Origin: a virus
IMG/VR virus record: IMGVR_UViG_3300045921_000114
Location: 1-33,987 of that record
DNA length: 33,987 bases
Strand: one strand, 5' to 3'
Part shown: in pieces, positions 178-26,068 of the stretch
Position numbering within the stretch: position 1 is the stretch's first letter
Layout of the letters: each line of letters opens with the position of its first letter
Translations under genes and position numbers: made by a program
The notes under the pieces: model-generated
What the model was told of the DNA's origin: nothing
Seen by the model: the letters and a program-made list of their open reading frames with translations, nothing else
The model's database searches: none

Positions 178-1233
178 CATGTAGTCTTGATAAGCTTTGT
201 TAGGTACGATTGCCCCTCCCTCGCCGAGGTTGAACGGTTGATTCGGGTTCGGTATGGCACCAATAAAGCTAATGCCGCCTTCCGGATCGGCGGTAAAGAC
301 TTGCCCACCAGACTCGCGGATTTTGAGCTTTTCCCTCTTAAGCTCGCGTTCTTCGTCGCGTTTTTCTTTATCCAGCGCCCGCAGTTCCGCATCGCGTTCT
401 TGTTCGCGCCTTAGAAGTTCCTCGTACCGAGCCCCGATAAGCGGGTTCTCAGAAAGGAGTTGTCCGACACTCAACCCGTTTTGACGAGCAGCAATGTTGA
501 CGCGCTGCAAGAACTCTTTTGAGGACATCTCCTGCGGAAGCTTAGGCGCGACGATGCCCGCAGCTTCCGGAGCTTCCGGAGCTACTCCAACATCCGGAAT
601 CGCAAGCGTCATGCTCTCAATAGGTACAAGGTAGTCTCGTCCGTAGAGGTTCATGACGACGCTTGGATTGGGCGCCTGTAAATGTGGCGGCAGATCTTCT
701 GGAGTCGAGCCGTCCTCGTTTAGCGGGAATGCGCCTTTCGGGATGCCTTGAGTCCGGAACAGCGGATCGCCAGTAAACGCTTGAGGAAGCTCTTTCTCCG
801 GAAGCGGCCGCACCTCCGGCATGTCGATCGCTTCGTCTTTTGGCATTGCTTGCGGCATTGTGATGCCACCCGGCTTTTGAGGCATCGTGATGCCACTCTG
901 CTCTTGCGGCATCGTGATGCCACCCGGCTGCGGGTTCGGATCGAAGATATAGCTATATGCTTTGTCGAAGCGACCGCGCAGAGCATTGGCAAGCTGCATT
1001 TGCCTTTCGTCGGCCTTGTCAATGCCGCGTGAGCCTACGTAGGCTTGCAGTATCTTCGCAATCCCTTGAAACGGGCTTGTGGGTGCGATGAATCGCCCGC
1101 TAGGCGCAGACTCTATGGGAGCCAGAGACTGCGCTTGCAGCATCTCTGCCATCTTGCGCGCGCGCTCGATGCGCGCGTTTTGGATTTGGTCTTCCGGAAG
1201 ATTGAACGATCCAGTGCGAGGGCGCAGGTCCAT
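1..1233 (-). CDS. Ejection/internal virion protein, N-terminal 411 codons (continues at 33810)
   Basis: The ATG at 1233 opens a frame that runs uninterrupted to base 1 and, once the circle is closed, on to a stop at 33349, giving about 564 aa. The product is hydrophilic, rich in Gln, Glu, Arg and Pro. Three 9-residue repeats containing GITMPQ lie at about residues 105-129, and a highly charged helical stretch (Glu/Arg/Lys-rich) lies near residues 300-345. No enzyme motif is seen. It sits between two other large virion proteins (1237-2037 and 31322-33349) in the place where podoviruses encode ejection or internal core proteins delivered with the DNA. The role is inferred from position and composition only. 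Confidence 0.75.
   Translation of the reverse strand, partial: MDLRPRTGSFNLPEDQIQNARIERARKMAEMLQAQSLAPIESAPSGRFIAPTSPFQGIAKILQAYVGSRGIDKADERQMQLANALRGRFDKAYSYIFDPNPQPGGITMPQEQSGITMPQKPGGITMPQAMPKDEAIDMPEVRPLPEKELPQAFTGDPLFRTQGIPKGAFPLNEDGSTPEDLPPHLQAPNPSVVMNLYGRDYLVPIESMTLAIPDVGVAPEAPEAAGIVAPKLPQEMSSKEFLQRVNIAARQNGLSVGQLLSENPLIGARYEELLRREQERDAELRALDKEKRDEERELKREKLKIRESGGQVFTADPEGGISFIGAIPNPNQPFNLGEGGAIVPNKAYQDYMLSKAAAGKPEMNVTVGAYEKKLSQQDAESVGKLRDIADSAYDTALHVRAIADILAPYSG
851..931. repeat. Three tandem 27-bp units inside the ejection-protein gene
   Basis: The units are 851-877, 878-904 and 905-931. Each encodes nine residues with the core GITMPQ on the minus strand. The outer units are nearly identical and the middle one differs at several bases. 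Because 27 bp is nine codons, copy number can change without breaking the frame. It is probably a flexible linker that grew by slippage. Confidence 0.9.
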
Positions 1234-16299: not shown

Positions 16300-16635
16300 A
16301 TGACGCGCTACATCATCATGTGCAGCTACACTGGTTACATTGTGGGCGACACCTCAGCCTACGCTGAGGGATTGCAGATCTCCAGTCCGGTGGACGCGGT
16401 CCGGCTGCTGGATTTGCTCCTCGGTGACGAGGCCATAGAGTACGTCGAGTACGGCCCCAGGGAGGCCGTCCCGGGCATCCGCCGCGGCTACTATGTCTAC
16501 AGCGCGAGTGATGACATTAAGGTCCCGGTCATCACAGATGGCGCGGATGACGAGCAGATCGACCTCGTCGACCGCAAAGCCAAGCTCGTGGCCTTTGTCC
16601 AGCGCAACCACGACCATGGCTGGGACTACTCCTAA
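16300..16635 (+). CDS. Small early protein, function unknown
   Basis: A protein of 111 aa, strongly acidic (many Asp/Glu) and Tyr-rich (YIIMCSYTGYIVGDTSAYAEGL, VEYGPREAVPGIRRGYYVYSASDD). It starts with ATG 16300 behind GGGAGAGTGAC and ends inside the XRE gene (20-base overlap). Highly acidic small early proteins in phages sometimes mimic DNA, but nothing here proves that. It probably shares the 15943 promoter. Confidence 0.75.
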   Translation: MTRYIIMCSYTGYIVGDTSAYAEGLQISSPVDAVRLLDLLLGDEAIEYVEYGPREAVPGIRRGYYVYSASDDIKVPVITDGADDEQIDLVDRKAKLVAFVQRNHDHGWDYS

Positions 16636-16858
16636 TCACAAGCAAGCCGCCAGGCCCCACACAGGGCCGGCGGCCTACCCCACGCCGGCCGACATAAGGG
16701 ATCGTCGTCTAGCATCAGGCCTGACGCAAAGCCAGGCCGCCGCGCTAGTACATGCATCCCTCAGAGCATGGCAGCAGTGGGAGGCTGGAGACCGCCGCAT
16801 GCACCCCGGCCTGTGGGAGCTCTTTTGCCGCAAAATCAATAACCTGCGGCCGAAATAG
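16616..16858 (+). CDS. XRE/Cro-type helix-turn-helix regulator
   Basis: A protein of 80 aa. After a Pro/Ala-rich tail of 25 residues, residues about 26-60 read IRDRRLASGLTQSQAAALVHASLRAWQQWEAG, the classical Cro/XRE pattern (LTQSQAAALV is helix 2 and HASLRAWQQWEAGDR the recognition helix and following turn). It is a small, probably dimeric DNA-binding protein. The start at ATG 16616 overlaps the preceding gene; a longer frame is shadow sequence. The dyads just downstream (16905-16919, 16953-16970) and the TACGC half-sites upstream are candidate binding sites. No partner repressor on the opposite strand is seen, so it is more Cro- than CI-like. Confidence 0.8.
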   Translation: MAGTTPNHKQAARPHTGPAAYPTPADIRDRRLASGLTQSQAAALVHASLRAWQQWEAGDRRMHPGLWELFCRKINNLRPK

Positions 16859-16904
16859 CCACACCTTTGTTTTTGCGCATCTTTTTTTTGATGATTGTGG
16901 TGCC

Positions 16905-16919
16905 CTCCATAATATGGAG
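16905..16919. promoter_or_regulatory. Perfect dyad CTCCATA-A-TATGGAG
   Basis: Seven-base arms around one base, 15 bp in all, 46 bases after the XRE gene. Size and symmetry suit a dimeric helix-turn-helix protein. Weak -35/-10-like elements (TTGATG 16888-16893, TAATAT 16910-16915) overlap it. Confidence 0.65.
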
Positions 16920-16952
16920 ACCATATGCGCGCAATTTTCGTGCCAAAGCAAC

Positions 16953-16970
16953 CAAAATTGCCCAATTTTG
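16953..16970. promoter_or_regulatory. Perfect dyad CAAAATTG-CC-CAATTTTG
   Basis: Eight-base arms separated by two bases, within the A+T-rich stretch and 30 bases before the iteron array. A further CAATTTT half-site is at 16932-16938. It may be an operator or part of an origin; no T run follows, so a terminator is unlikely. Confidence 0.65.
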
Positions 16971-17000
16971 CTTATTCCACGTTTTTGAGCAAAGGATGGG

Positions 17001-17067
17001 CTAGGTAACTAGGTAACTAGGTAACTAGGTAACTAGGTAACTACAGTAACTACAGTAACTACAGTAG
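17001..17067. repeat. Iteron-like array: 5 x CTAGGTAA then 3 x CTACAGTAA/G
   Basis: Bases 17001-17040 are five exact 8-bp units CTAGGTAA. Bases 17041-17067 are three 9-bp units, two CTACAGTAA and one CTACAGTAG. The change of unit keeps the CTA...GTAA core. Because neither the period nor the stop codons allow translation, the array is non-coding. Such arrays bind replication initiators in plasmids and phages. A simple slippage repeat is the alternative. Confidence 0.9.
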
Positions 17068-17339
17068 TTAAAGGATACCTGCTCGATGGTGAACGGACCT
17101 AGCCTAGCCCTAGACCTAACTAGGTTCCTTCACCCATGCTCGACGGAGCCACGAGACCCGGTAGCCTTATCGTCCCTGGGGTGCTGCCTTCGCCGCCCCG
17201 CGCGCTGTTTCAGGACTCCCCACAGTAGCGCTGTACATCAGCACGCACGCTGCCGTCTTTTTAACCGACCATGCGAGCTAGCACCAGAATAGCAAATCTC
17301 GCAAAGCATGTAAAGGCCTTTGAATGCAGTCCATACGGA

Positions 17340-17381
17340 GGTGACAATTTGCGGCGTCACATAGTGACGTTTTGCGTCACC
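17340..17381. promoter_or_regulatory. Cluster of GTGAC(G)/CGTCAC half-sites
   Basis: GGTGAC at 17340-17345, CGTCAC at 17355-17360, GTGACG at 17364-17369 and CGTCAC at 17375-17380. The middle pair forms CGTCAC-ATA-GTGACG. The cluster lies 40-80 bases upstream of the sigma54-like element, the distance at which activator sites are common. Confidence 0.65.
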
Positions 17382-18019: not shown

Positions 18020-18664
18020 ATGATGGAGGAGTGCGGTGGTGGGCAGAGCTTGGCTGCGCTGTTTGCTGGTCTAGCGAAGGCGCAGGCAAAGATCGGTACG
18101 GCTTTGAAGGACAAGAAAAATCCTTACTTCGGATCGACTTATGCCGATCTTGCGGCAGTCTGGGAAGCTTGCCGGCAAGCGCTGACAGAGCAGGGGATCG
18201 CAGTCATTCAAGCGCCAATCCATTCTGAAGATGGGCGCTTGCACCTGGAAACCACGCTTTGCCACGAGTCCGGGGCGCATTGGTCGCGTATTGCTTCTAT
18301 TCCTGTGGCCAAGCAAGACGCGCACGGTTACGGATCAGCTATTACCTACCTGCGCCGGTACGCTTTGGCGGCCGTCGTAGGGGTTGTGGCTGAGGAAGAC
18401 GACGACGGCAATGCGGCCGTGCAAGTCAAGACCAAGGACGTGCGGCCTACATCTGGCGCTCAGAAGGCGCTATCTGTAGACCAGCGCGCCAAGATCGATG
18501 ATCTTGCGCAGCTTGTGACCAACGTCATCGCCGAGGACGGGCCAAAGTCTGCGGCGCTGGAAATCGAAGCGGCTGGCCTTGATAACGACGAGAAAATTTA
18601 CCTGTGGTCGAAGCTCGATAGCAAGACTCGGGCTGCGATCAAGTCGATCAAGGAGGGAACATGA
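18020..18664 (+). CDS. erf: ERF-family single-strand annealing protein
   Basis: A protein of 214 aa. The family signature is clear: SLAALFAGLAKAQAKIGTALKDKKNPYFGSTYADLAAVWEACRQALTEQGIAVIQ, followed by the DAHGYGSAITYLRRYALAAVVGVVAEEDDDGNAA segment, the ERF core ending at about residue 140. ERF proteins form rings that anneal complementary single strands in RecA-independent phage recombination and genome circularisation. The C-terminal third is a helical linker. Its stop overlaps the next start (ATGA). The start at 18020 or 18023 cannot be separated. A protein with an SSB-like tail (20363-20620) is a likely partner. Confidence 0.9.
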   Translation: MMEECGGGQSLAALFAGLAKAQAKIGTALKDKKNPYFGSTYADLAAVWEACRQALTEQGIAVIQAPIHSEDGRLHLETTLCHESGAHWSRIASIPVAKQDAHGYGSAITYLRRYALAAVVGVVAEEDDDGNAAVQVKTKDVRPTSGAQKALSVDQRAKIDDLAQLVTNVIAEDGPKSAALEIEAAGLDNDEKIYLWSKLDSKTRAAIKSIKEGT

Positions 18665-20161: not shown

Positions 20162-20439
20162 CCTACAGCATTTTTTGCTGCCCCAAGTGCAAAGGCCCGG
20201 CTCGCGTATGCCATACCTACAAGACATACCGCAGGCTGTTGTGTTTGGGCGAGTGCGGCCGGGTCAGCGTGCCGCGCCCTCCGCTGTCCAACCTCACGGG
20301 AGCGTCTAAGAAGACGCATCCGTGGCGCAAATATCCAGCGTTGACCAAGCGAAGGAGTAACGATGCCTTACGAGATGAAAGAAGGTACTGGGGCGTTGTT
20401 CCGGAACGACAAGGAAAAGGAAAACCAACCGGACTATAA
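20158..20439 (+). CDS. Zinc-ribbon-like early protein
   Basis: A protein of 93 aa with C8-x2-C11 (CPKC) and C29-x3-C33 (CLGEC), separated by about 17 residues, as in zinc ribbons; the remainder is very basic (KRRSNDALRDERRYWGVVPERQGKGK). Start coupled to the upstream stop by ATGA. The last 77 bases overlap the next gene in another frame, unusually long, so the native protein may end earlier in relatives. A nucleic-acid-binding role is likely but unproven. Confidence 0.65.
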   Translation: MTYSIFCCPKCKGPARVCHTYKTYRRLLCLGECGRVSVPRPPLSNLTGASKKTHPWRKYPALTKRRSNDALRDERRYWGVVPERQGKGKPTGL

Positions 20440-20620
20440 AGGGGATGCAAAGATCGGCGGCGAGGAATACAGAATCGCCGGATGGATCAGGGAGGGGAAG
20501 CGCGGGAAGTTTTTGAGCTTGCAGATTGAAAGCAAGCTGCCGGTGAAAGTTAACGCGCCGAAACAGGTTAAACAACAGGAAGTGGTATTTGATGACCTCG
20601 AGGACGACGTGCCGTTTTGA
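20363..20620 (+). CDS. Small ssDNA-binding-type protein with SSB-like acidic tip
   Basis: A protein of 85 aa. AGGAG 7 bases before ATG 20363. The beta-rich body (GTGALFRNDKEKENQPDYKGDAKIGGEEYRIAGWIREGKRGKFLSLQIESK) resembles the DUF736-type small proteins found near phage recombination genes. It ends in VVFDDLEDDVPF, close to the DDDIPF tip of bacterial SSB, which docks partner enzymes. It is half the usual SSB length and lacks a full OB-fold pattern that I can confirm. With ERF upstream, a role in protecting or presenting single strands for annealing is likely. Confidence 0.75.
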   Translation: MPYEMKEGTGALFRNDKEKENQPDYKGDAKIGGEEYRIAGWIREGKRGKFLSLQIESKLPVKVNAPKQVKQQEVVFDDLEDDVPF

Positions 20621-20863: not shown

Positions 20864-21348
20864 TCCAAGCCGCGGAACTTCTCTGCCGGCCGGCATTAGA
20901 GCAATGGCGGCCGATAGAGACTTCCACAGAGAAAGCCTGCCTTTCCTGCGGTAAGTTTCTTCCGCTTTCGGAGTTTTACTCCTGGCACAGGAAGCGGAAG
21001 GATGGCACGGTTGTTGCTTACAGCTCCTACTGCAAGACGTGCGACGATAGACGTCGTAATGAGCAGAAAAAGAGGAAAAGGATGGAAAGGACGATAGAAA
21101 TGGAGAGAGAGCTAAACGGACTGAAGATCAAGGTGGCCAGCCTTGAGCGGACCGGTTATTTCTTGCGCTACCTCGTGCTGCAGGGGATCAACGCGGCGCG
21201 GGATGGGAAGACCCAACAATGGGCCAAGATGGCTCGAGAGTCTCTAGACGATCTAGACGGTGAGCTAGGGCTCTGGAGAGACGATGAGCCGGTACGAGGG
21301 GCACCATGGCCGACGAGGAACAGGTTTTCGCCTACTGGCAAGAGGTGA
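20860..21348 (+). CDS. CxxC zinc-finger protein with basic coiled coil
   Basis: A protein of 162 aa. C27-x2-C30 (ACLSCGKFLPLSEFY) and C58-x2-C61 (YCKTCDDRRR) form a zinc finger of the 'CxxCGxxKPLSEFY' type that is frequent in phage nucleases and uncharacterised proteins. A very basic helix with heptads follows (residues 64-100). No HNH catalytic pair is visible. The last 43 bases overlap the replication-organiser gene, so the two are probably co-translated. A DNA-binding role next to replication functions is inferred. Confidence 0.75.
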   Translation: MIQAAELLCRPALEQWRPIETSTEKACLSCGKFLPLSEFYSWHRKRKDGTVVAYSSYCKTCDDRRRNEQKKRKRMERTIEMERELNGLKIKVASLERTGYFLRYLVLQGINAARDGKTQQWAKMARESLDDLDGELGLWRDDEPVRGAPWPTRNRFSPTGKR

Positions 21349-21686
21349 TGCAAAAACCTCGCGCCAGGATGGACGAAGCGCGACGCAAGGCCATCCGAGG
21401 CAGGCTTCGGGATGGCTACAGCGTGCAAGACCTGCAAGACGCTATCCGAGGTTGTCGTTTCTCCCGGTTTCACATGGGGGAAAACGACCGCAGAAAGGTC
21501 TATAACGACGTGTCCTTGATTTGCCGGGATGCGGCCCATGTGGATCAGTTTATCGAGATCCTCGAGGCTCACGAGGCCCGTAGACGCGCGGAGAACGAAC
21601 GGGCTTTACCGAGTCCGTCCGAGGTCCGGGTGGTCGCCCCGGAAAGGCTTCAAGAACTCAGGCGGGCGCTCAAGAAGCGAACATGA
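21306..21686 (+). CDS. Replication-organiser C-terminal domain (helicase-loader type)
   Basis: A protein of 126 aa. Residues about 5-85 (VFAYWQEVMQKPRARMDEARRKAIRGRLRDGYSVQDLQDAIRGCRFSRFHMGENDRRKVYNDVSLICRDAAHVDQFIEI) match the C-terminal domain of phage replication initiators, which contacts host helicase. In most phages this domain follows an N-terminal winged helix; here it stands alone, and the preceding gene may supply DNA binding. ATG 21306 follows GAGGGG. It is my strongest candidate for recruiting host replisome proteins to the origin. Confidence 0.7.
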   Translation: MADEEQVFAYWQEVMQKPRARMDEARRKAIRGRLRDGYSVQDLQDAIRGCRFSRFHMGENDRRKVYNDVSLICRDAAHVDQFIEILEAHEARRRAENERALPSPSEVRVVAPERLQELRRALKKRT

Positions 21687-23174: not shown

Positions 23175-24356
23175 CTACAACTCGCCTCGGAAGGCACGGT
23201 GCTGCAGGGAGGCGAAGAGGGCATCGAGCGCGCGGAGGCCTACGTCGCCTCTGCCCTTAAGCTTATCGATGAGACCAACGACCTTAGCAAAGCGCTGCTT
23301 CGTCGATTCCTCTGGGGCAATGAACCGAAGCGACCTCACCTGCTCAGCATTCAGGTGGGGTTGGGCCGCACGGCGCGTTAGTGGTTCAAGGTGAGACTTC
23401 CCATGAGGCGAGTTGATGAGGAAGTTGTAGAAGACCGCATTCACCCACGACAGCTCTACGATAAGGTCGAATGCTGCATAGGCGCCGTCGTACTCTGAGG
23501 GTACGATGGCGCAGTCTCCGGTATTCACTCCACTCCGCACGATGATTAGGTTGCCGGCTTGGACGCGACATTTCTCTATTCGAGCAGCTTCATCTGGTGA
23601 GATGCGTTTCAAACCCTTTGCGGTGATCGTTCCCGCCTTGATGTTCGTCGCCCTGATAAACGGCAGGCCTTCGTCCACGTAAGGAGGGGGTGAACCAGTT
23701 CCGTATCGAACAGACGTGATCTGGTCCTCGAAACGCCCGATCGGCCACCCCTTCGGATTCGTGGCGGGGTCGCCGAACATGTCGAGGAAGATGGATTGGG
23801 TGAGGGTGTCGAGCTGGGCGAGGGCGGCGCGGCGCTTGGCCCGCAGCGCGTCCACCTTGTCCAGGATCTCCGCAATCCGCCGCTGCTCGGGGAGGGGTGG
23901 CAGCGGGAACCGCAGTGACAGCAGCGCATCTCGACCAACGGTCGCCTGGTTCACCCACTGCCGGCACATCCCTTTGAATCGGCCGTGCTTGAATTGAAGG
24001 TTCAGCCAACGTGTCAAATAGCGCCCATCGATCTCGCCATCACGCGGGCGAAGACGCAAGAAGTGGTTACTGAAGACGGCCGGCTCTTCGAGGCCGGGAA
24101 AAAACGCTGTCTTCCCAACGAGGTCCGGGCTGTTCGTCGCGTTGAATAGAACGTCACCGGGCTGCACTAGGAAGCGATCGATGTTTCGGTAGTCCCGCGG
24201 TACGCGCCGCCGCTTGCTGAGATCGAGCTGGCCCTCGGTCGTGATGTTGTTCATCCGAAACTGGAACACGCCATCATCGACGTCTTCGCCGCAAGCAAAC
24301 CCCGAAGTGGCGTCAGCCAGGACGTCGCCAAGCTCAGTCTCCGGCCAAGCGCTCAT
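23175..24356 (-). CDS. hsdS: Type I restriction-modification specificity subunit HsdS
   Basis: A protein of 393 aa from ATG 24356, overlapping the hsdM stop as ATGA; the long upstream extension of this frame is shadow sequence with Arg/Gly-rich nonsense. Two target-recognition domains (about 1-150 and 200-345) are separated by the conserved helix region PLPPLPEQRRIAEILDKVDALRAKRRAALAQLDTLTQSIFLDMFGDPATNPKGWP, and the C-terminal repeat ends LFASLQHRAFRGEL. Full length with both domains, so it should give one asymmetric DNA target. It directs HsdM to its sites. Convergent with the early operon, 15 bases away. Confidence 0.92.
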   Translation of the reverse strand: MSAWPETELGDVLADATSGFACGEDVDDGVFQFRMNNITTEGQLDLSKRRRVPRDYRNIDRFLVQPGDVLFNATNSPDLVGKTAFFPGLEEPAVFSNHFLRLRPRDGEIDGRYLTRWLNLQFKHGRFKGMCRQWVNQATVGRDALLSLRFPLPPLPEQRRIAEILDKVDALRAKRRAALAQLDTLTQSIFLDMFGDPATNPKGWPIGRFEDQITSVRYGTGSPPPYVDEGLPFIRATNIKAGTITAKGLKRISPDEAARIEKCRVQAGNLIIVRSGVNTGDCAIVPSEYDGAYAAFDLIVELSWVNAVFYNFLINSPHGKSHLEPLTRRAAQPHLNAEQVRSLRFIAPEESTKQRFAKVVGLIDKLKGRGDVGLRALDALFASLQHRAFRGEL

Positions 24357-25906
24357 CCCAGCATCCCCTCCAACTCCTTCATCCCCCGCTGGATTTCCTC
24401 CTCCAACTTCGCCAGCTCCGCGAGGATCTCCTTCGGTGCGCGGTGCTCCACCGCCTCGTGCACCACCTCCTTGTAGCGGTTGAGCGAGAGGTCGTAGCCC
24501 TGCGCGGCGATGTCGGCCTTGGGCACGCAGAAGCTCTGCGCGGTGCGCGGGCGTTCGCGCTCGGCGCCCGCGCGCTGCGTCCAGCGCGCCAGCAGGTCGG
24601 GCAAATTGTTCTTCGCGTGTTCGTCCTCGCTCAGCGGGGCGCGCGGCACCGGGCCGAGCTTGTCCTCCGGCAGCAGCGGCGTGCGCTTGTCGTCCAGGCT
24701 CCAGCCGTCGGCCGCGACGTCGTAGAACCACACCTGGTCGGTGCCGCCGGAGTTGGTCTTGGTGAAGAGCAGGATCGCGGTGGAGACGCCCGCGTAGGGC
24801 CGGAACACGCCGCCGGGCAGCTTGACCACGGCGTCGAGCTTGTGTTCTTCCACCAGCATGCGGCGCAGTTGTTTGTGCGCGGTGCTGGAGCCGAACAGCA
24901 CGCCGTCGGGCACGATCACCGCGGCGCGGCCGCCGGCTTTGAGCAGGCGCAGGAACAGCGCCAGGAACAGCAGCTCGGTCTTCTTGGTCTTGACGATCTG
25001 CAGCAGGTCCTTGGCGGTGTTCTCGTAGTCCAGGCTGCCAGCGAAAGGCGGATTGGCCAGCACCAGCGTGTACTTCTCTTCCTCGCCCGCGTGGTCCTGC
25101 GCCAAGGAGTCGCGGTAGTGGATGTCGGGGTTCTCCACGCCGTGCAGCAGCATGTTCATGCTGCCGATGCGCAGCATGGTATGGTCGAAGTCGAAGCCGT
25201 GAAACATCCGGTGGTGGAAGTGCTCGCGCAGCTTCGCGTCGTGCAGGAGGTTCTGGTGGCGATCGCGCAGGTACTCGCCGGCGGCGACGAGAAAGCCCGC
25301 GGTGCCGCAGGCTGGTTCGCAGATTACGTCGTTGGGCTGCGGAGCGGTCAGCTCCACCATCAGCCGGATAATGTGGCGCGGGGTGCGGAACTGGCCGTTC
25401 TGCCCGGCGCTGGCGATCTTGTCGAGCATGTACTCGTAAACGTCGCCTTTGATGTCCCGGTCTTCCATCGGCACCGCGTCGAGCAGGTCCACCACCTTGG
25501 CCAGCAGCGCCGGCGCGGGGATGGTGAAGCGCGCGTCCTTCATGTGGTGCGCGTAGGTGGAGTCGTCGCCGCCGTGGTGACGGGCCAGCTCGTTGCGCAG
25601 GAAGGGGAAGACATGCTCGCCGATCACGGCGTACATGTCGCCGGGAGCGAAGTGCTTGAAGCGCGACCAGCGCATGTCCTCGTAGGGACGGCCCTTGGGG
25701 TCGTTGCCCTCGGGGAAGACGCGGCGCTCCATCGGCCGCTTGAGCCGGGCGGCCTTGTTCTCCTCCAGCGTGTGCAGGTCGTCCAGCCGGCGCAGGAAGA
25801 GCAGGTAAGTGATCTGCTCGACCACCTCCAGCGGGTTAGAGATGCCGCCGTACAAGAAAGAGTTCCAGATGCGGTTAATTTGGTTCTTGATGGCGCCGGT
25901 GATCAT
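24353..25906 (-). CDS. hsdM: Type I methyltransferase subunit HsdM
   Basis: A protein of 517 aa from ATG 25906; upstream codons of this frame add a Cys-rich 25-residue piece unlike the family and are left out. The N-terminal helical domain (IKNQINRIWNSFLYGGISNPLEVVEQITYLLFLRRLDD) is followed by the S-adenosylmethionine motif CEPACGTAGF (about 196-205) and the catalytic NPPF (285-288), as in N6-adenine methyltransferases. Normal family length. It pairs with the adjacent HsdS to methylate DNA. No HsdR is encoded anywhere in this genome. The gene looks G+C-richer and more biased in codon third positions than its neighbours, which suggests recent acquisition. Confidence 0.93.
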   Translation of the reverse strand: MITGAIKNQINRIWNSFLYGGISNPLEVVEQITYLLFLRRLDDLHTLEENKAARLKRPMERRVFPEGNDPKGRPYEDMRWSRFKHFAPGDMYAVIGEHVFPFLRNELARHHGGDDSTYAHHMKDARFTIPAPALLAKVVDLLDAVPMEDRDIKGDVYEYMLDKIASAGQNGQFRTPRHIIRLMVELTAPQPNDVICEPACGTAGFLVAAGEYLRDRHQNLLHDAKLREHFHHRMFHGFDFDHTMLRIGSMNMLLHGVENPDIHYRDSLAQDHAGEEEKYTLVLANPPFAGSLDYENTAKDLLQIVKTKKTELLFLALFLRLLKAGGRAAVIVPDGVLFGSSTAHKQLRRMLVEEHKLDAVVKLPGGVFRPYAGVSTAILLFTKTNSGGTDQVWFYDVAADGWSLDDKRTPLLPEDKLGPVPRAPLSEDEHAKNNLPDLLARWTQRAGAERERPRTAQSFCVPKADIAAQGYDLSLNRYKEVVHEAVEHRAPKEILAELAKLEEEIQRGMKELEGMLG

Positions 25907-26068
25907 GAGGTCAGGCCCCCAGGTCTTGTCATTAAAGCACTTGCCGCCACGGCACGGACAGCACGTCCGGCGTGACCACACTCGACCGTGCGCCCAGTGT
26001 GCAGCAGCAGCCCGGCGCGCCCCTGCGCAATGAGATTAGCGGTCGGCCACAGCCACTAGAAAAGGCTC

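What the first reader, a model, noticed from the sequence alone, without database searches (positions are those of the whole stretch)
17001..17067. Two-unit iteron array as replication-origin candidate
Five exact 8-bp units turn into three 9-bp units sharing CTA...GTAA, next to A+T-rich DNA and dyads, in the only large gap of the early region. Replication-organiser and ERF genes are in the same operon.
Basis: partly seen in the sequence, partly recalled or inferred. Interest (0 to 1): 0.6.

Follow-up and report, generated by a model that had tools for sequence, protein, structure and literature searches.

The report
Phage RNA gene beside repeat array

Summary
The array is confirmed: 5x CTAGGTAA, 2x CTACAGTAA, 1x CTACAGTAG (17001-17067), far beyond chance. 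It is not free-standing. On the opposite strand lies a structured RNA of Rfam family RF02932 (17156-17279, 85 bits). Relatives show the RNA running on to 17088, with a promoter-like site starting it at ~17279. The RNA recurs in >100 viral contigs, often beside initiator, primase or helicase genes, and is followed by A+T-rich DNA. The array is not conserved, but its core TAGTTA is the most over-represented hexamer in the same 3' flank of 41 relatives (12 loci against 3.4), and L240, L330 and L014 carry other short arrays there. The origin reading stays possible but unproven: GC skew does not discriminate, the initiator homologue lacks its N-terminal half, and one phage with the RNA has iteron-like repeats inside its initiator gene 4 kb away. 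Unexpected: across the RNA superfamily, the 8 nt after GGCTCC[G/A] recur 1 nt after the terminal CACC (44 of 59 distinct words match at 7-8 positions; 1.3 when swapped), identity stopping sharply at nt 9, with no complement in cis.

The parts
17001..17040 (.). five exact 8-bp units CTAGGTAA (minus strand, the RNA's sense: TTACCTAG, core TAGTTAC)
17041..17067 (.). three 9-bp units CTACAGTAA, CTACAGTAA, CTACAGTAG
17088..17279 (-). structured non-coding RNA gene; Rfam RF02932 (Betaproteobacteria-1) covers 17156-17279 at 85.3 bits; relatives extend it to the terminal CACC at 17091-17088
17286..17314 (-). sigma-70-like promoter, TTTACA - 17 nt - TATTCT with TG before the second hexamer; its predicted start coincides with model position 1 of RF02932 (a consensus match only)
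   Evidence: site; RNA start
17088..17150 (-).
17136..17143 (-). X: the variable 8-nt word after GGCTCCG (TCGAGCAT)
17079..17086 (-). X': second copy of the word (TCGAGCAG, 7/8) one nucleotide after the terminal CACC, about 11 nt before the array in RNA direction
16859..17000 (.). A+T-rich stretch 3' of RNA and array; an A+T-rich 3' flank is general in relatives
16616..16858 (+). small HTH_31 (XRE-like) protein gene, convergent with the RNA
18020..18664 (+). ERF single-strand annealing protein
20363..20620 (+). single-strand DNA-binding-like protein
21306..21686 (+). homologue of only the C-terminal part of O-like replication initiators (phrog_16167 positions 187-272 of 315)

Best explanation
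WHAT (shown, about 0.95): the array is the repeat-expanded 3' flank of a minus-strand gene for a roughly 200-nt structured phage RNA, a member of a superfamily of which Rfam RF02932 covers only part. HOW (inferred): the locus works in the phage's replication module as a transcript-assisted origin or replication-control site. A promoter at 17286-17314 makes the RNA; its 5' hairpin loop appears to pair with GGCUCCG and with the terminal CACC (RNAalifold prediction), leaving the two identical 8-nt words X and X' to emerge at the two junctions. Transcription runs on into the array and the A+T-rich DNA, which would act as the unwinding stretch, and X or X' would hold the RNA on the template strand (R-loop) for priming or strand opening. 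The array amplifies a TAGTTA motif already common at this place in relatives and would tune unwinding or protein binding. The RNA's identity, position, conservation, A+T-rich 3' flank and X = X' are shown; transcription, R-loop, priming and the array's role are not.
For: RF02932 hit at 85.3 bits, E 1.4e-14, with compensatory changes in helices. The same RNA occurs in >100 viral contigs; pattern scans gave 69 and at least 120 stretches. Among the 70 proteins nearest the RNA at 44 non-redundant phage loci, replication initiation proteins (7), primase/helicase (3), DnaB (3), primase (2), ERF (2) and RNase H (1) appear; no initiator, primase or DnaB family is in the top list for 51 distant genes. 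In cultured Paracoccus phage Shpa the RNA directly follows the primase-like gene. Viral 3' flanks are A+T-rich, -7.6 +/- 1.0 points of G+C at +250. TAGTTA lies in the 3' flank of 12 of 41 relatives against 3.4 in shuffles, 0 of 500 shuffles reaching 12, while its reverse complement is in only 3. X = X'. [quoted passage not shown]
Against: GC-skew minima lie at the RNA in only a few of 14 relatives and track coding strand. In phage G074 an iteron-like array lies inside an O-like initiator gene 4 kb from its RNA, so its origin is probably not at the RNA. In most relatives the RNA is followed, median 88 nt, by a same-strand gene of varied function, which also fits an early-region regulatory RNA; intergenic A+T richness is ordinary. 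Genomic copies of the RNA exist in Paraburkholderia and relatives. No expression or replication data exist for any of these phages here.
Confidence: 0.35

Rival explanations
1. The locus is an early-region small RNA gene acting in trans (or as a leader), not an origin. A conserved scaffold presents two identical 8-nt antisense seeds (X and X') that bind a target RNA or DNA; seeds evolve with the target. The array is merely its 3' tail and separates the RNA from the convergent HTH gene.
For: Neighbouring genes are varied (VWA protein, primase, RNase H, HNH, unknown). Dispersed genomic copies keep promoter-proximal DNA, RNA and X' while flanks differ. X varies while the scaffold is fixed (59 distinct words in 85 loci), and no complement in cis was found. 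GC skew does not point to the RNA.
Against: No target identified; the clustering with initiator, primase and helicase genes and the A+T-rich 3' flank are not explained except by early-region location.
Confidence: 0.3
2. Classical iteron origin: a phage initiator binds the 8/9-bp units and melts the A+T-rich stretch, as lambda O does at ori-lambda.
For: Exact tandem units next to A+T-rich DNA, ERF and SSB-like genes, and an initiator homologue that lacks the region which in relatives carries in-gene repeats, so the origin could lie elsewhere.
Against: The initiator homologue lacks the N-terminal half; 8-bp spacing does not keep units on one face of the helix; the array is missing from nearly all relatives with the RNA; a three-unit pattern was not found in other viral contigs.
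Confidence: 0.12
3. The units are operators: the small HTH protein 16616-16858, or another repressor, binds them to control the convergent or divergent transcription in this gap.
For: An HTH_31 gene is adjacent; partially palindromic cores; a separate cluster of GTCAC dyads at 17354-17380 shows the gap carries regulatory-looking sites.
Against: Nearly perfect head-to-tail 8-mers are unusual for XRE operators; no conservation with the gene was seen; the GTCAC dyads are better operator candidates.
Confidence: 0.08
4. The array is a by-product of replication slippage or copying from the RNA's hairpin arm, with no function.
For: Copies are nearly identical (recent); the hairpin's 5' arm contains the array motif ACCTAGTTA (sequence); most relatives lack an array.
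Against: The TAGTTA core is over-represented at this place in relatives without arrays, and independent arrays occur there in L240/L330 and L014.
Confidence: 0.15

Closest known systems
Rfam RF02932, Betaproteobacteria-1 RNA
   Same: The window RNA matches the whole 120-nt model above the gathering score.
   Different: The model covers only the 5' part of one subtype. The full RNA runs about 70 nt further to CACC and X', and alpha-type RNAs from other phages score below the threshold. No paper on its function was found in the held library.
Phage lambda ori (O-protein iterons plus A+T-rich tract inside gene O)
   Same: Tandem direct repeats next to A+T-rich DNA; an initiator homologue is in the genome (compare PMC7466680).
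   Different: Here the units are 8-9 bp, lie outside the initiator gene and beside an RNA gene, and the initiator homologue lacks its N-terminal half.
T4 oriF/oriG and ColE1-type transcript-primed origins
   Same: Order promoter, transcript, A+T-rich downstream DNA (PMC3016281).
   Different: R-loop and priming are untested here; the RNA is a conserved folded scaffold with a duplicated 8-nt word.
IS110-type bridge RNA (recalled from general knowledge)
   Same: A fixed scaffold carrying short variable words, one of them matching sequence at the end of the RNA gene.
   Different: No IS110-type recombinase appears among the families listed for neighbouring genes; the two words are identical in sense.

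Membership tests
Rfam RF02932 (Betaproteobacteria-1 RNA) | covariance-model score above the gathering cut-off | tested here: met
   85.3 bits against 49.4, model positions 1-120
Rfam RF02932 (Betaproteobacteria-1 RNA) | expressed as a discrete RNA | not testable with these tools
   only a promoter-like site at the matching position
iteron-type replication origin | tandem direct repeats next to A+T-rich DNA | tested here: met
iteron-type replication origin | cognate initiator with a DNA-binding domain | tested here: not met
   the only initiator homologue found covers the C-terminal part alone; another unrecognised binder cannot be excluded
iteron-type replication origin | repeats conserved in related replicons | tested here: not met
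   array absent in nearly all relatives that keep the RNA; only TAGTTA enrichment and unrelated arrays in L014, L240, L330
iteron-type replication origin | DNA synthesis starts there | not testable with these tools
   GC skew is confounded by gene direction
transcript-primed (R-loop) origin | promoter, transcript, downstream A+T-rich unwinding element | tested here: inconclusive
   sequence order is right, but promoter and transcript are predictions only
transcript-primed (R-loop) origin | RNA 3' ends extended into DNA | not testable with these tools
   needs experiments
IS110 bridge RNA | adjacent IS110-type recombinase gene | tested here: not met
   not among the 25 Pfam families shown (of 33) for 70 neighbouring proteins

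The most novel reading that the evidence does not exclude
A widespread, undescribed class of self-addressed phage RNA: a conserved, probably pseudoknotted scaffold (GGUCGG..ACGGCAGC, UACUGUGGG, GGCUCC, CACC) that carries one freely variable 8-nt word twice, 47-99 nt apart, so that each phage's RNA recognises its own locus (or one chosen target) by RNA-DNA or RNA-RNA pairing, for instance to place an R-loop for replication initiation or to tie two genome copies together. The window's array would then be a lineage-specific unwinding or processing element just beyond the second word.
Probability: 0.2. Interest if true: 0.9.

Novelty: new variant of a known kind. Interest (0 to 1): 0.62.

Why it matters
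Read as an iteron array the finding is one more unproven origin candidate. Read in context it points to an RNA gene kept by many phages, mostly invisible to the current Rfam model, in or near replication modules, with a duplicated variable 8-nt word whose two copies stay identical while differing between phages. No alignment of the known 120-nt family would show that rule, and it can be tested by changing one copy. If the word is a guide, it would be a new RNA-directed mechanism in phages; if not, the rule still constrains any model of what RF02932 RNAs do.

Tried and rejected
Exact three-unit pattern in viral contigs: none. blastn of the region or of RNAs against cultured phages: nothing except Paracoccus phage Shpa; plasmids: none. 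GC skew as an origin test: window minimum near 15.0-15.5 kb with a near-equal value at 17 kb, following the strand switch; not informative in relatives. A general rule that arrays follow the RNA: only a mild excess of short tandem repeats in 3' flanks, 32/80 against 11.8 in shuffles, but 5' flanks also show 26/77 against 14.3. A cis partner pairing with X: rejected, pairing no better than with swapped words. A tRNA or tmRNA explanation of the terminal CCA: no ARAGORN hit. Stable fold of RNA plus array: z only -1.2. Structure models of the 126-aa and 66-aa proteins had low confidence and were not interpreted; a fold search was not collected for that reason. Close relatives with the same 3' end motif: none. 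A further occurrence of X in the window (+1506 in RNA direction) is at chance level.

Full report
The window is a virus record of 33,987 bases. Minus-strand late genes (portal, terminase, capsid) lie on the left and a plus-strand early operon on the right. The portal protein's nearest cultured relatives are below 40% identical, so this is a poorly sampled phage lineage.

Observation. The array is exactly as described apart from its last unit (CTACAGTAG). TRF score 90; no shuffle of the window reached it (maximum 64 in 100 shuffles), and no exact four-fold tandem of 7-9-mers occurs in 1.125 Mb of related phage DNA. The G+C of the adjacent 16850-16999 stretch is low.

What was missed. Rfam finds RF02932, Betaproteobacteria-1 RNA, at 17156-17279 on the minus strand (85.3 bits, gathering 49.4). 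A promoter-like site (TTTACA-17-TATTCT, TG before the second hexamer) ends at 17286, which puts the start at model position 1; it is a consensus match, and 0.7 such sites are expected by chance in the stretch scanned. Relatives in viral and bacterial contigs (pattern scans) show that the RNA continues past the model: alignments extend it to an invariant GGCTCCG, a hairpin with a conserved GGCUAGGU strand, and a terminal CACC at 17091-17088. RNAalifold supports several helices with changes on both sides and predicts pairing of the 5' loop with GGCUCCG and with the terminal CACC (the last two rest on nearly invariant bases, hence complementarity without covariation).

Distribution. Rfam recognises only the beta-type RNA, but the same motifs (GGTCGG..ACGGCAGC, TACTGTGGG, GGCTCC, CACC) occur in viral contigs and in genomes of alpha- and betaproteobacteria and in metagenome-assembled Acidobacteria and Bacteroidetes (some single hits to the pattern may be chance). 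At 44 non-redundant phage loci the nearest genes include replication initiators, primase/helicases, DnaB, primases, ERF and RNase H, unlike genes further away; in Paracoccus phage Shpa the RNA follows the primase-like gene. Most beta-type loci have a same-strand gene of varied function a median 88 nt downstream. The window does not: a convergent HTH gene lies there.

The array in comparison. No relative has this array. Yet TAGTTA, the core of the unit in RNA sense, which I had taken from the window and a first small set, turned out to be the most over-represented hexamer in the 130-nt 3' flank of 41 non-redundant beta-type relatives: 12 loci against 3.4 expected, 0 of 500 shuffles, and only 3 loci for the reverse complement. 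A few of these loci were already in the first set (L086, L108, L122) and some of the signal is shared ancestry. Different short arrays occur at the same place in L240 and L330 (17-mer x3) and L014 (13-mer x4.5). The 3' flank is A+T-rich in phages generally. This suggests the array is an amplification within a 3' flank that already has a role, rather than an independent element.

Origin or not. For: replication neighbourhood, A+T-rich flank, and a truncated initiator that lacks the part which in related O-like genes carries in-gene repeats. Against: GC skew and phage G074, where an iteron-like array lies inside an O-like initiator gene 4 kb from the RNA. I rate an origin or replication-control role and a trans-acting early RNA as about equally likely.

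An unexpected rule. In each RNA the 8 nt after GGCTCC[G/A] (X) recur one nucleotide after the terminal CACC (X'). With the CACC chosen without looking at X, per-position identity in 85 loci is 0.89, 0.87, 0.84, 0.91, 0.93, 0.95, 0.93, 0.74 for nt 1-8 and drops to 0.38 and 0.32 at nt 9 and 10. Among 59 loci with distinct X, 44 match at 7 or 8 positions; words swapped between loci give a mean of 1.3 and a maximum of 6 in 1000 trials. The words vary widely (AAAAGCTA, TCCAGCAT, TTGAGCTT, ACGAGCAT; window TCGAGCAT/TCGAGCAG), though with mild base preferences at each position (at most 0.63 bit). No complement of X was found at any fixed place or better than chance in cis. In Paraburkholderia-type genomic copies X' is kept while the DNA beyond differs, so X' belongs to the RNA unit. 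A few RNAs lack a clear X' or end differently. Identity maintained while sequence drifts is what is expected if both words pair with the same complementary strand: the DNA of the locus itself, or a target in trans. Which of these is not shown.

Literature. No paper on RF02932 was found in the held library; the lambda and T4 comparisons come from PMC7466680 and PMC3016281. The IS110 bridge RNA and ColE1 comparisons are from general knowledge and are only analogies.

Noticed in passing
window 17136-17143 and 17079-17086 (minus strand); 85 related loci: The RNA carries one variable 8-nt word twice (after GGCTCC[G/A] and 1 nt after the terminal CACC); identity ends sharply at nt 9 and no cis complement was found.
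   Followed up: yes
window 17354-17380: GTCAC dyads (GGCGTCACATAGTGACGTTTTGCGTCACC) upstream of the early operon, likely repressor operators or a terminator-like hairpin.
   Followed up: no
window 23175-25981; also L153, L176, L181: A type I restriction-modification methylase and specificity pair lies in the window; HsdM genes also sit near the RNA in three bacterial loci.
   Followed up: no
L150, L158 and similar bacterial loci: Bacterial copies of the RNA often lie a few hundred bases downstream of a phage-type integrase gene, suggesting prophages or integrative elements.
   Followed up: partly
L152, L154, L155, L161, L166/L187, L174: Multicopy RNA genes in Paraburkholderia and Caballeronia; some are truncated, two at the same base (after GGCGAAGTTA).
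   Followed up: partly
L195 8076-8147 (phage record G074): An 11-bp x 6.4 array lies inside an O-like initiator gene, resembling a lambda-type origin.
   Followed up: partly
L014, between the RNA and the primase gene: A 13-bp x 4.5 repeat array (AGTAGATTGAGAC) lies 3' of the RNA.
   Followed up: partly
window 849-929: A 27-bp x 3 tandem repeat, period a multiple of three, probably within a coding region.
   Followed up: no
L082 1144-1211: Rfam type II hammerhead ribozyme (57 bits) in a viral contig that also carries the RNA.
   Followed up: no
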